Positions 18,069 to 27,358 of a stretch of 64,000 nucleotides of DNA are shown here, piece by piece. The notes beneath the pieces are model-generated. The model was not told the origin of the DNA. It ran no database searches and saw only the letters and a program-made list of their open reading frames with translations. Location of the stretch: NCBI GenBank assembly GCA_001275005.1, contig JWZX01003313.1, positions 1-64,000 of the forward strand, written 5' to 3'. The position numbers and the translations under genes were made by a program. The number at the start of each line of letters is the position of its first letter. The stretch's first letter is position 1. Source of the stretch: Chrysochromulina tobinii. Lineage: Eukaryota > Haptophyta > Prymnesiales > Chrysochromulinaceae.

Positions 18069-18187
18069 TCAGCCCATGACTTTTGCAGCTTCTGCAGCCC
18101 CACATAAAAGCACCGACGGCGCCGTGACGGGCGCGGGCTCAGCCCACGACCATTGCAGCTTCTGCAGCCCCAAATAGAAGCTCTGCG
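18043..18187. repeat. two-copy ~70-bp tandem repeat at the 3' end of the chromatin gene
   Basis: GCGCCGTGACGGGCGCG...GCAGCTTCTGCAGCCCC occurs at about 18043-18118 and again at about 18119-18187. The minus-strand reading of the second copy encodes FYLGLQKLQ at the end of the large protein, and the first copy adds the last residues in a different frame, so the stop codon context was changed by the duplication. Confidence 0.7.
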
Positions 18188-21100
18188 AATCGGCACGCAT
18201 CTCGCCACCGGTGCGCCTGAGCTCGCAGCGGCACACCGGGCAGGTGCGCCTGAGGCGCAGCTCGAGGTCCTTCTCCGCACGTAGACGGTTCTGTGCGTCC
18301 CACCAACGGCCAAGACACGGCGCGCACAGAACGTGAGCATGCTCTGCACAGCCTGTCAAATCGAGCGCATCGGTCTTGACGCCGTGGCACAAGAGGAGCT
18401 GACGCTTGCAGCCCCAGATCATGCAGCGCTCGGTACGGCGCGGTGCGGAGCCCCCCTCTTCGCCCTCGCCCCCCTCGTCGTCCGAGGAGCTCATCCACTG
18501 AGCGCTCGCCGCCGCCGCTGATGACCGCCGATGACCGCTGATGGCCGCCGCGAAGCGCGAAACCGCCGCCTGATGCTCGCCCACCAAAGCCGCCGCGGCC
18601 GCTAGCTGACCCCCCAGCGCCGCCGCCACCCCGACCGACTGTGAGGATTGAGCGACGCATGTTGGGCAGAGCCATTCGCCCTCCGGGATAGCGAGCAGCG
18701 GCGGCGTGAGGCAGCTCGTGTGGTACCCCTTATCACAGCCGTCGCACAGCAGGAGCAGGTGCTCATCATGCGTGCCGGCGCAGACCTGACACGATTCGTC
18801 GGGGGGCACGTCGGTGGGCGCGCCCGGGCAGAACACTTGATCCACCGGCTTGGCCCACATCTCATGCTGCCACTTGCAGCTTCGCCCTTTGTGGCACTTA
18901 CCTTGCTGGTAGCGATGGCACAGGCTGGCCGGCAAGTTGGCGAGCTCCAGGTCTGTCGGCGGTGGTGGCCGATCGGGCTTCGGATGCCTCGAGGGAGGAT
19001 GCCAAACCCTCTGGGCCGCAACGCCCTCCGCCGCCTCGATAGTGCCGCGCGCCTCAGCGGCGGAGGCCGAAAGCGCGCGTGCGAGCATGACCCGTTCCTC
19101 GTCGCGGTTCTTAGGCGCGCGGATGACCTTGAGCTTCTTACTGGGCGGCGCGCTCGATGCGGCCGGGGGGCGGAAGCGCAAGCAGAGGCCGCGCTGGCCC
19201 TGGAGCCGAATATGGAAGGTGTCGAATGGGACCTCGAGCATCGAGCACCGAGCCTCGCGCTCGTCGCTTGTCGACGTGCTGTGCTCCTTTGAGTGTGTAA
19301 GGACTGCGGAGGAGAGCCATCGCGGTACTCGGGAGGGGGGCGGCGCTGGTGCGGGTGGGAGCGGCGGAACCTGCGCACTTGCCCATCCGGGCATTCCCCC
19401 AGCCCCACAGTGGGGCAGCAGCGGCGGTGGTGCGGGGCGCGGCCTAAGCTTCGGAAGGTGCGGCGGCGGCTCGCTGAACGCCTCAGGCGGCACCGCTTCC
19501 CACTTGTGCTTGCATTGATAGCATGCATACTTGACCAACGGCCGCCGGCCTATGCCGATAATGTGCGCCTGCCCCCGCGACGTCGCGCCGTATTGGGCCC
19601 ATAAGTTCGAGCCCAATACGGCGCTCGATGGGCCAGCGACCCGCAGCCCGAGCACTGGCGTCGTATCGAGCACTGGCGGTCCACCTGCACTGGCCACCAG
19701 CGCGATGGGCCTCGACCCGCCGGCATTGCTCGCGGCGGCGGCACTGGTCGCGGACAGGTTGGCGGGCAGGTGCGACGAGGCCAAGGTGCATGCGGGCAGG
19801 TGCGACGAGGCCGAGGTGCATGCGCTTGCAACGGCTGGCGCCGCTTCCGCAGCGTCCACTGCATCCCCGTATTGCTCTGCCACCGCCTGGATGGCAGGGT
19901 CGTGGAAGCTGGGAAAGTCTCCTATGGTGCACTTCAGATGGTTCTCGTGACAAAGATCGCACGCATTGCGCAGGCGCGGCGTGTAACGACCGCCATCCGC
20001 CGACTCTGCCACACCGTTGGCGTCCACCTCCACCTGGCTGCCATACGCCGCGTCTGCAGCAAGGCCTTCGGTGGTGGCGAGTTGAGCATCGACCACCTCC
20101 GCCATCGCCTCCATTACCGCCTCTGCCGGCACTTCCGGTGAAGGCCCTTCCCGGACCCTTGCTTGCTTCGCCGCCGCCTCGGCCGCTCCCCCATCGGCCG
20201 CCCAAGCACAAGCGGGGCAGCTGGGTACCTGCCGCTGCTGCCACGCACGCATGGCGATCGCATGCGTCTTCTTCACCCGCGTCTGCTGCGCCTCGTAGCG
20301 CGCCAAGATTGGGTTGTAAGCCACCATCAGAGCCGCGTGGTGCGCCTGGAGTTGATGAAACGCATGGATGGCTGTGACGCGCTTGCCCCGAGCGACCTCA
20401 GCGTGCTTCCTTAAGGCCTCATGCACTGCGGTGAGGCGCTTGTACGATGCGGTCAGTGTGCCGTGCTCTTGTGCGCTCAACCCCGTGACGCCCACATCGA
20501 GGCCAACCGTTGCACTGGTGACGTCGTTGCCGTACGCATGCAGGGCTGCCTTGTACAACACCACGGCCGCTTCATGTTGGTTCCGAAACCTGTCGTACTC
20601 TCTGACTGCAGCGTCGGCAATGGCATGAGTCGCGATACGCGCGGTCGTAGCTGCGGTCAGGGCGGCATCCAGCGGATCGATGGCGACGGCGGCAGGATCG
20701 GTAGTGGCAGCGGCGGTGCCAGCTTCGATTCTCGCCTGTTTGGCAGCGTCGCCATCACACGGACGGCACTCAGCCATCTCAATGTCTTCCACAGCTGCTG
20801 CCTGAGTAGCCACGTCAGCCTCTGCCATGGCTTCCACGGCCATGTCTTCCATAGCCACATCTTCCACAGCCATGTCTTCCACAGCCACAGCCACAGCCAC
20901 GTCTGCCTCCGCCGCATCCTTCTCCTCGGCCACATCCGCCTCTGCCGCCGCCGACGACTCAGCCGCTGCCGTGGCCGCCGCCTTGGTCGCCGCCCGTGCA
21001 GCCTCTGCCGATGCCGCCTCCGCCAATGCCGCCCTCGCTGCCTCAGCCTCCACCAATGCCGCCCTCGCTGCCTCAGCCTCCGCCAATGCCGCCCTCGCTG

Positions 21101-27100: not shown

Positions 27101-27358
27101 GAGAACTTCCTCATGGCGAAGGTTGTGCCACTTAACGTCTCCGTCGTCATACTTGACAAAGTGCAGAGGCGACGAAAAGTCACGAACAGTCCCCGAAAAC
27201 CACGTCGGTCGCGAGCAGCCGGCCCAAAGAATCGAAAGCCGCCGACCGATTGCCCTCGCACCTATCGCTGGGACTTGTCGCAGATCAGCCGCATCGAGTA
27301 CCGTCCTCTCACGGATCGAGTACCGTGCTCTCTGCGACGGCTGCGTCTGGGACTCCAT
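18069..27358 (-). CDS. Giant multi-domain chromatin-reader protein, 3 exons, ~2,993 aa
   Basis: Predicted exons are 25289-27358, 22693-25165 and 18069-22507. Intron 1 (25166-25288, GTGTCA...GGCAG) removes an in-frame TAG and rebuilds a chromodomain; intron 2 (22508-22692, GTACGT...TCCAG) has matching phase. Domains in order: Tudor-like (about 38-85, [17 protein letters not shown]); C2H2 finger (118-138, CGYCTRTF...H..AC); acidic run; HTH-like helix set (220-282); AP2/ERF-like (341-383, [17 protein letters not shown]); Tudor-like (498-560); chromodomain (680-735, VQRIIEEQ + [16 protein letters not shown]); zinc cluster [10 protein letters not shown]; partial AP2 ([10 protein letters not shown]); Tudor-knot (1692-1742, [14 protein letters not shown]); PHD-like Cys cluster; Ala/Glu 10-residue repeats; CCCH finger (nt 18870-18920, [19 protein letters not shown]); PHD finger (nt 18650-18800, [17 protein letters not shown]); RING-like end (nt 18200-18420). 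Start is [12 protein letters not shown]. Probably nuclear; binds modified histones and DNA. It could still be two or three genes. Confidence 0.7.
21021..21200. repeat. six 30-bp tandem repeats coding Ala/Glu-rich decapeptides
   Basis: The unit TCCGCCAATGCCGCCCTCGC and following bases repeats with a 30-bp period. On the coding (minus) strand it gives [14 protein letters not shown] decapeptides, likely a long helix inside the chromatin protein. Confidence 0.85.
21351..21410. repeat. 15-bp minisatellite inside the chromatin gene
   Basis: GGTGGACGCGGAGGG units, about four copies, encode repeated [10 protein letters not shown] pentapeptides on the minus strand. Confidence 0.8.

What the first reader, a model, noticed from the sequence alone, without database searches (positions are those of the whole stretch)
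18069..27358. Giant 2,993-residue chromatin-reader mosaic: Tudor, C2H2, AP2, chromodomain, Tudor-knot, CCCH, PHD and RING in one frame-consistent gene
Seen: three long minus-strand open frames join with matching phases at good splice sites. The first join removes an in-frame TAG and rebuilds a chromodomain ([13 protein letters not shown]...[12 protein letters not shown]); the second has a GTACGT donor and a pyrimidine-rich CAG. The combined domain list is unusual: I know of no protein mixing AP2/ERF-like DNA-binding with Tudor, chromo, PHD, CCCH and RING-like modules. Inference: one polypeptide that reads histone marks, binds DNA and perhaps ubiquitinates.
Basis: partly seen in the sequence, partly recalled or inferred. 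Interest (0 to 1): 0.85.

Follow-up and report, generated by a model that had tools for sequence, protein, structure and literature searches.

The report
Giant algal chromatin reader with AP2 repeats
A haptophyte alga appears to carry one very large gene that strings together DNA-binding AP2-like repeats, histone-reading domains and a RING-like zinc domain, and similar fusions turn up in unnamed, probably related, environmental sequences, which makes it a member of a little-known family rather than a one-off.

Summary
The three minus-strand frames join in phase to exactly 2,993 residues. The first join rebuilds a chromodomain: 27.1 Pfam bits joined (cut-off 25.1) against 11.8 for exon 2 alone. 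For the second, 45 of 45 residues after the acceptor, ahead of any in-frame Met, are identical in a diverged homologue, while the stretch before them lies in another frame there.

P0006, one uninterrupted metagenome frame, carries the Tudor-like, chromodomain and RING-like blocks in the same order. Nine of 224 collected proteins hold AP2-like, chromodomain and RING-like domains in one frame. The genome is almost certainly Chrysochromulina tobinii.

PHD, chromodomain and AP2 assignments are supported (AP2 not by Pfam cut-off). The RING is a conserved C3HC4 pattern of unproven fold; two Tudor calls are weak. Best explanation: a DNA-targeted multivalent histone reader, possibly an E3 ligase, working like UHRF1 without being one. 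Transcripts, binding and catalysis are untested.

The parts
25289..27358 (-). exon 1, 690 codons (Met1 to Gln690)
   Evidence: metagenome P0142 has the same start and runs on into the same intron peptide
25166..25288 (-). intron 1, 123 bp, holds the in-frame TAG
   Evidence: exact sites uncertain
22693..25165 (-). exon 2
   Evidence: not searched against the protein collection
22508..22692 (-). intron 2, 185 bp
   Evidence: homologue P0005 has part of this stretch in frame with the exon, the window has it in another frame followed by a stop
18069..22507 (-). exon 3 with stop
   Evidence: P0004 98%, P0005 79% over the searched part; 1,157 of 1,478 residues identical in P0005
27068..27244 (-). 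Tudor-like domain, residues 39-97 (weak)
   Evidence: 43% to P0006 residues 6-64, E 3e-7 in a set of ten chosen sequences; Pfam PTM_DIR17_Tudor E 0.009 below cut-off; no PDB match better than 0.35
26942..27016 (-). C2HC/C2H2 zinc finger, residues 115-139 (below cut-off)
   Evidence: Pfam zf-C2HC_2 E 4.8e-4, 20.2 bits, cut-off 27
26501..26734 (-). conserved module, residues 209-286 (HTH-like by eye)
   Evidence: 86% identical over 78 aa to a chromodomain frame on contig C1083
26426..26572 (-). truncated AP2-like copy, residues 263-311
   Evidence: family HMM 32 bits
26168..26383 (-). complete AP2-like repeat, residues 326-397
   Evidence: family HMM 120 bits; profile of 23 repeats hits WRI1 1.7e-8, AtERF1 2.5e-6; model with three strands and a helix, pLDDT 78; TEM1, WRI1, AtERF1 top structural rows; no Pfam hit for this copy alone
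25673..25864 (-). possible Tudor/agenet-like segment, residues 499-562 (by eye only)
   Evidence: no supporting match in Pfam or PDB
25031..25321 (-). chromodomain, residues 680-735, interrupted by intron 1
   Evidence: Pfam Chromo 27.1 bits joined, cut-off 25.1, 11.8 in exon 2 alone; best PDB match Clr4 chromodomain 4.5e-5
24056..24643 (-). module residues 865-1060 of unknown kind
   Evidence: 58% identical over 215 columns to a C1183 frame that also has an AP2-like repeat
23771..23929 (-). degenerate AP2-like copy, residues 1103-1155
   Evidence: family HMM 38 bits; 45% to a P0142 repeat
22416..22960 (-). divergent AP2-like domain, residues 1426-1545, interrupted by intron 2
   Evidence: first half 17.5 bits on the family HMM; joined 23.1 bits; second half ranks 124 of 68,811 windows; residues 1516-1560 45 of 45 identical in P0005
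21795..21968 (-). Tudor / Tudor-knot domain, residues 1695-1752
   Evidence: PHF20L1 Tudor 1.5e-4; Pfam Tudor_4 E 0.007 below cut-off; 54 of 58 identical in P0005
21486..21650 (-). Cys-rich PHD/C1-like zinc domain, residues 1801-1855
   Evidence: sub-threshold C1/PHD matches; 10 of 10 Cys/His identical in P0005
20946..21233 (-). Ala/Glu-rich repetitive stretch, residues about 1940-2035, coiled coil by eye
   Evidence: residues 1856-2100 are 65% identical with 47 deleted in P0005
18858..18929 (-). CCCH zinc finger, residues 2708-2731
   Evidence: Pfam Torus E 0.039 below cut-off; 53% over 40 columns to P0012; residues 2700-2735 28 of 36 identical in P0005, 5 of 6 Cys/His kept
18645..18797 (-). 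PHD finger, residues 2752-2802
   Evidence: Pfam PHD 45.4 bits, cut-off 24; best PDB Lid/KDM5 and BAZ2B, UHRF1 further down
18141..18431 (-). C-terminal RING-like C3HC4 zinc domain, residues 2874-2970
   Evidence: eight zinc-ligand positions kept in 13 of 14 aligned sequences, the window included, the 14th with its second Cys shifted; 94 of 97 identical in P0005; weak RING Pfam matches

Best explanation
One gene encodes a roughly 3,000-residue nuclear scaffold. AP2-like and other zinc domains bring it to DNA; the chromodomain, Tudor domain and PHD finger read histone tails together; and the C-terminal RING-like domain probably acts as, or recruits, an E3 ubiquitin ligase on that chromatin. In logic it resembles UHRF1 (methyl-lysine reader, PHD, DNA-binding domain, C-terminal RING) with AP2 in place of SRA. 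In unnamed, probably haptophyte, metagenome relatives the same chromodomain and RING-like end, often with AP2-like repeats, is also joined to SET methyltransferase domains. Shown here: gene structure, domain content, conservation, relatives. Inferred: nuclear location, ligands, ligase activity, the hosts of the relatives.
For: Joined frame 2,993 aa; chromodomain only complete when joined, best match Clr4 across the junction; P0006 carries Tudor-like, chromo and RING-like blocks in the same order in one frame (E-values there are for ten chosen sequences; against the whole collection P0006 has E 1.3e-26 to the C-terminal part). 9 of 224 collected proteins hold AP2-like, chromo and RING-like in one frame and 18 of 224 chromo plus RING-like (collected by similarity, so not a rate). 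AP2 identity by profile, fold and similarity to phage proteins: best 2e-5, and 13 of the 20 rows listed (of 177 records) are annotated as HNH or homing endonucleases. PHD far over cut-off. All Cys/His of the PHD (10 of 10) and RING-like (12 of 12) segments are identical in P0005, while two linkers are 46% and 65% identical. C2093 has a PHD match and the RING-like domain in one own-genome frame.
Against: No transcript or protein data. Junction 2 rests on conservation, not on a decisive score, and exon 2 was not searched in the protein collection. The RING-like model is poor (pLDDT 59), structural comparison of six chains gave nothing, its Cys3-His4 spacing (17) is longer than in RINGs as recalled, and RING models scored 13.1 and 18.1 bits on the window copy against cut-offs of 27 and 50. 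The single-frame AP2-chromo-RING-like and SET-RING-like relatives come from unnamed metagenome contigs; in the window's own genome only two RING-like copies were found, and the SET-like matches on C1083, C796, C1070 and C197 are not among them. None of the 21 hits of the chromo/RING-like search bears an organism name. The N-terminal Tudor is weak. No assay of DNA or histone binding.
Confidence: 0.6

Rival explanations
1. Two or three adjacent genes rather than one: exon-1 frame ending at the TAG, exon-2 frame starting at the ATG at 25165, exon-3 frame starting inside.
For: An in-frame ATG lies exactly at 25165; the exon-1 and exon-3 frames are listed as separate proteins in the metagenome collection, as gene callers that ignore introns would do anyway.
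Against: The chromodomain would be cut in two; 45 of 45 conserved residues precede the first in-frame Met (1562) of exon 3; P0006 has blocks from all three exons in one frame; gaps of only 123 and 185 bp.
Confidence: 0.12
2. The protein is one polypeptide but only a reader and DNA-binding scaffold; the C-terminal zinc domain is a protein-interaction domain without ligase activity.
For: Unusual ligand spacing, sub-threshold RING Pfam scores, no confirmed fold.
Against: Eight C3HC4 ligand positions conserved; the domain stands at or near the C-terminus in the relatives shown; recognised RINGs are also fused to AP2-like repeats: 20 of 109 hits carry PF13639, PF13923 or PF00097, among them named Chrysochromulina and Emiliania proteins.
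Confidence: 0.25
3. The AP2-like repeats are not DNA-binding here but are expanded by recombination as spacers or protein-binding repeats.
For: Large tandem arrays with copy-number difference (P0142 has one full repeat more than the window); the window copy itself gives no Pfam AP2 match.
Against: Profile and fold match DNA-binding AP2 domains including WRI1 solved with DNA.
Confidence: 0.2

Closest known systems
UHRF1 (Tudor-PHD-SRA-RING E3 ligase; architecture recalled)
   Same: Combines methyl-lysine reader, PHD of the same group (UHRF1 PHD among the matches), DNA-binding and C-terminal RING-like domain
   Different: No SRA or ubiquitin-like domain matched in the three frames; AP2-like and chromo instead; RING-like unproven. 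The genome has two SRA matches elsewhere.
Clr4/SUV39 chromo-SET methyltransferases and their ubiquitin-ligase partner complex (CLRC, recalled)
   Same: Chromodomain closest to Clr4; metagenome relatives P0007, P0012, P0112, P0113 have chromo plus SET plus RING-like
   Different: The window protein has no SET match; SET and a RING-like domain in one chain differs from separate subunits; no such fusion was found in the window's own genome
AP2/ERF transcription factors (plants), ApiAP2 (apicomplexans)
   Same: Same AP2 fold and profile; AP2/ERF expansion reported for Emiliania huxleyi, 58 AP2 and 99 ERF (PMC4827209, passages read)
   Different: Here the repeats sit in arrays fused to chromatin domains; own-genome copies are below the Pfam AP2 cut-off
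PHF20/PHF20L1, KDM5 and BAZ2B readers
   Same: Tudor closest to PHF20L1; PHD closest to Lid/KDM5 and BAZ2B
   Different: No JmjC, bromodomain or ARID among the Pfam matches

Membership tests
AP2 domain (AP2/ERF superfamily) | sequence similarity to known AP2 domains | tested here: met
   profile of 23 repeats hits five distinct PDB sequences at E<=1, all AP2/ERF proteins (WRI1 1.7e-8, AtERF1 2.5e-6)
AP2 domain (AP2/ERF superfamily) | Pfam PF00847 gathering cut-off 33.3 bits | tested here: not met
   0 of 4 own-genome matches over cut-off, best 27.1; 4 of 23 repeats match at E<=0.01, the window repeat not among them
AP2 domain (AP2/ERF superfamily) | three-stranded sheet packed on a helix | tested here: met
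AP2 domain (AP2/ERF superfamily) | sequence-specific DNA binding | not testable with these tools
   needs a binding assay
Chromodomain | Pfam cut-off | tested here: met
   27.1 bits against 25.1 in the joined sequence
Chromodomain | aromatic cage for methyl-lysine | tested here: inconclusive
   a Tyr (681), a Trp and a Phe stand at the positions recalled from HP1; read by eye, cage positions come from no call
PHD finger | Pfam cut-off and zinc ligands | tested here: met
   45.4 bits against 24; all 10 Cys/His of the segment kept in P0005
RING finger | eight ligands in C3HC4 order | tested here: met
   C2876 C2881 C2888 H2906 C2909 C2912 C2937 C2940; positions kept in 13 of 14 aligned sequences
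RING finger | curated RING model cut-off | tested here: not met
   window copy: RING_XB3-XBAT31 18.1 bits (cut-off 50), zf-C3HC4_2 13.1 (cut-off 27)
RING finger | cross-brace fold | tested here: inconclusive
UHRF1 family | SRA domain | tested here: not met
   no SRA match in the three frames; SRA matches lie on contigs C1143 and C1310
SUV39/Clr4 family | SET domain | tested here: not met
   none in the window protein; present in metagenome relatives

The most novel reading that the evidence does not exclude
Haptophytes may have evolved single-chain heterochromatin machines, in which a repeat-based AP2 code chooses the DNA site, a chromodomain/Tudor/PHD set checks histone marks, and a C-terminal RING-like ligase (with a SET methyltransferase in sister proteins) writes the mark: the functions of transcription factor, Clr4 and its ubiquitin ligase, or of UHRF1, in one polypeptide, with specificity tuned by gain and loss of AP2 repeats.
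Probability: 0.17. Interest if true: 0.85.

Novelty: new variant of a known kind. Interest (0 to 1): 0.56.

Why it matters
Most eukaryotes recruit histone modifiers to DNA through separate transcription factors (recalled). Here AP2-like repeats, with 109 matches in this genome to the exon-1 query (the window itself and one match to another module included; only 60 of 187 candidates scored), share open frames with MBD, CXXC, Myb, Agenet and PHD domains over their cut-offs and, in relatives, with chromodomain, SET, CW, homeodomain, and GHKL ATPase plus Tudor. If the repeats bind specific sequences, this would be a direct coupling of DNA sequence to chromatin state across a major algal group, testable domain by domain.

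Tried and rejected
Viral origin of the C-terminal domain: 12 pattern matches in viral contigs, none confirmed. Structural proof of the RING: weak model, no match. AP2 by Pfam on the window copies: no hit, hence the profile and fold route. HMM scoring of junction 2 across open GT-AG pairs did not discriminate; conservation was used instead. P0195, on a contig of the same length as P0004's, was thought to be the exon-2 frame; its sequence is a different AP2-RING protein. NCBIfam gave nothing. Literature: searches list no paper whose title or shown abstract start describes AP2-chromo-RING or AP2-chromo-SET fusions in haptophytes (one search showed 8 of 76, 15 of 78); passages were read only in PMC4827209 and PMC4580454 (AP2, chromatin, chromodomain and transcription factor each 0 occurrences in the main text). 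Subscription papers and preprints are not in that library.
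Full report
WHAT WAS CHECKED. The window lies on contig C2154 of a 53.15 Mb, 2,253-contig eukaryotic assembly. The three minus-strand frames of 753, 846 and 1,492 residues are real. Codon-position composition is alike in the three exons.

JUNCTION 1. The Pfam chromodomain scores 11.8 bits in exon 2 alone and 27.1 bits, over the 25.1 cut-off, when the end of exon 1 is joined on. 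The best solved relative is the Clr4 chromodomain, E 4.5e-5, aligned across the junction. So a chromodomain spans an intron there, but the exact sites are not fixed. The metagenome protein P0142 ends with the same peptide read into the intron, which argues against the TAG being an assembly error.

JUNCTION 2. Scores on the AP2-like model do not discriminate (rank 2 of 89, 23.1 bits, median 20.9); the second half of the domain alone ranks 124 of 68,811 windows with 8.2 bits (the 25 best that were printed are overlapping windows of the exon-1 repeat). The stronger evidence is evolutionary. The metagenome protein P0005 is identical to residues 1516-1560 in 45 of 45 positions, although the first in-frame Met of the exon-3 frame is residue 1562. 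Immediately upstream, P0005 reads MLHEPCRLPLQLSLLL in frame with the exon, whereas in the window the matching peptide lies in another frame and runs into a stop. This implies an indel that is not a multiple of three, as expected of an intron; it is inferred from the proteins, the P0005 DNA was not seen.

ONE POLYPEPTIDE. P0006, a single 955-residue frame from a metagenome contig, aligns with the joined protein in the same order: N-terminal Tudor-like block (39-97 against 6-64, E 3e-7), chromodomain (705-734 against 92-121, E 0.003), a short PRN-EER motif (E 0.017), and the C-terminal RING-like domain (2871-2969 against 842-939, E 2e-30) (these E-values are for comparison with ten chosen sequences or one, not a database; in the full collection the C-terminal part has E 1.3e-26). 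These blocks come from all three exons. In the window's own genome, contig C2093 carries a PHD match and the RING-like domain in one 1,434-residue frame. Exon 2 was not used as a query in the protein collection.

ORGANISM. Six of the 109 hits to the AP2-like repeat carry an organism name, and all six are haptophytes: three Chrysochromulina 'OHIO' (C. parva, expansion of Chrpa1 recalled), C. tobinii, Phaeocystis antarctica and Emiliania huxleyi (candidates were capped at 7,996). The C. tobinii protein (Ctob_013588) matches contig C996 in three pieces at 88.3, 98.4 and 99.6% identity, and both contigs are 13,573 bases long. C. tobin has a published assembly of 59 Mb, 3,472 contigs, 63.4% G+C and about one intron per gene (PMC4580454, passages read); the assembly here is smaller, 53.15 Mb in 2,253 contigs. 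The window is almost certainly C. tobinii.

PARTNERS OF THE REPEAT. In six own-genome frames scanned, the repeat shares a frame with MBD (C1959), RING-H2 (C1077, below cut-off), Agenet and Tudor_5 (C930, the latter below cut-off), three Myb repeats and CXXC (C996), PHD with DUF7028 and Agenet (C1852, Agenet below cut-off); the sixth (C1183) had no Pfam hit at 0.05. In relatives: SET with chromo (P0012, P0105, P0113), SET without chromo (P0110), CW-MBD-chromo-SET (P0222), homeodomain-Tudor (P0165), GHKL ATPase-Tudor (P0206), PHD-C2H2 (P0144, a named Chrysochromulina gene model). 20 of the 109 hits carry a RING Pfam (PF13639, PF13923 or PF00097).

THE C-TERMINAL DOMAIN. In the window copy the ligands are C-x4-C-x6-C-x17-H-x2-C-x2-C-x24-C-x2-C. 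The eight positions are kept in 13 of 14 aligned sequences, the window included; in 12 of 14 the third-to-fourth spacing is one residue shorter; the C2093 copy has its second Cys shifted. It is 94 of 97 identical in P0005. Several RING models match weakly. The AlphaFold model is poor (pLDDT 59) and none of six chains matched. It is RING-like by pattern, not by proven fold.

WHERE THE FAMILY IS NOT SHOWN. The single-frame AP2-chromo-RING-like proteins (9 of 224 collected) and chromo-RING-like proteins (18 of 224) are from metagenome contigs; none of the 21 hits of the chromo/RING-like search has an organism name. In the own genome only two RING-like copies were found, the window and C2093, and SET-like matches on C1083, C796, C1070 and C197 are elsewhere. 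So the haptophyte origin of the SET-RING-like sisters is inferred from their AP2-like repeats.

MECHANISM. Shown: gene structure, domains, conservation, relatives. Inferred: nuclear scaffold that is placed on DNA by AP2-like and zinc domains, reads histone tails by chromo, Tudor and PHD, and ubiquitinates through the C-terminus. The PHD is closest to Lid/KDM5 and BAZ2B fingers, with UHRF1 further down; these read the unmodified H3 N-terminus (recalled). The arrangement works like UHRF1, but SRA is absent, so it is not filed there; the genome has SRA and cytosine methyltransferase matches elsewhere.

VERDICT. Observation confirmed, interpretation partly supported. The most interesting result lies beyond the finding: a family of AP2-chromo-RING-like and AP2-chromo-SET-RING-like proteins that our searches of open literature did not find described (by listings).

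Noticed in passing
L025 991-5910 (contig C1183): 1,640-residue frame with several copies of the exon-2 module, an AP2-like repeat and, by eye only, a chromodomain-like segment and a C-terminal part with HxD...H resembling a 2-oxoglutarate dioxygenase; no Pfam hit at E 0.05.
   Followed up: partly
L035 1860-7049 (contig C996): Frame with three Myb repeats, CXXC and AP2-like repeats; the public model Ctob_013588 (617 aa) matches this locus only in three pieces, so the published gene model may be wrong.
   Followed up: partly
L031 3030-7247 (contig C1083): Chromodomain frame sharing the exon-1 module at 86%; its SET-like region lacks, by eye, the usual NHSxxPN motif and Pfam SET did not match, so it may be inactive.
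   Followed up: partly
P0206, P0207, P0212 (metagenome): GHKL-ATPase plus Tudor proteins with an AP2-like repeat (P0206 scanned; the others by precomputed Pfam), MORC-like by eye; recalls the AP2-MORC association reported in Plasmodium (PMC11483127, search listing only).
   Followed up: partly
own genome: 59 chromodomain and 76 PHD matches at E <= 0.001 in 53 Mb; some chromodomains may be in retroelements.
   Followed up: no
window 26168-26572: AP2-like repeat number differs between the window (one full, one truncated) and metagenome P0142 (two full, one truncated).
   Followed up: partly
P0163 after residue 672: This exon-1 homologue leaves the window sequence abruptly before the chromodomain and continues with unrelated residues; chimaera, frameshift or real variant not decided.
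   Followed up: no
P0007, P0102, P0107 (metagenome): TAZ zinc fingers with chromodomain and the RING-like end in one frame, with SET in P0007 and P0102.
   Followed up: partly
window 43943-58221: Neighbouring frames are ordinary: MFS transporter, EF-hand protein, Na/Ca exchanger, nucleoside transporter with a SAM domain.
   Followed up: no
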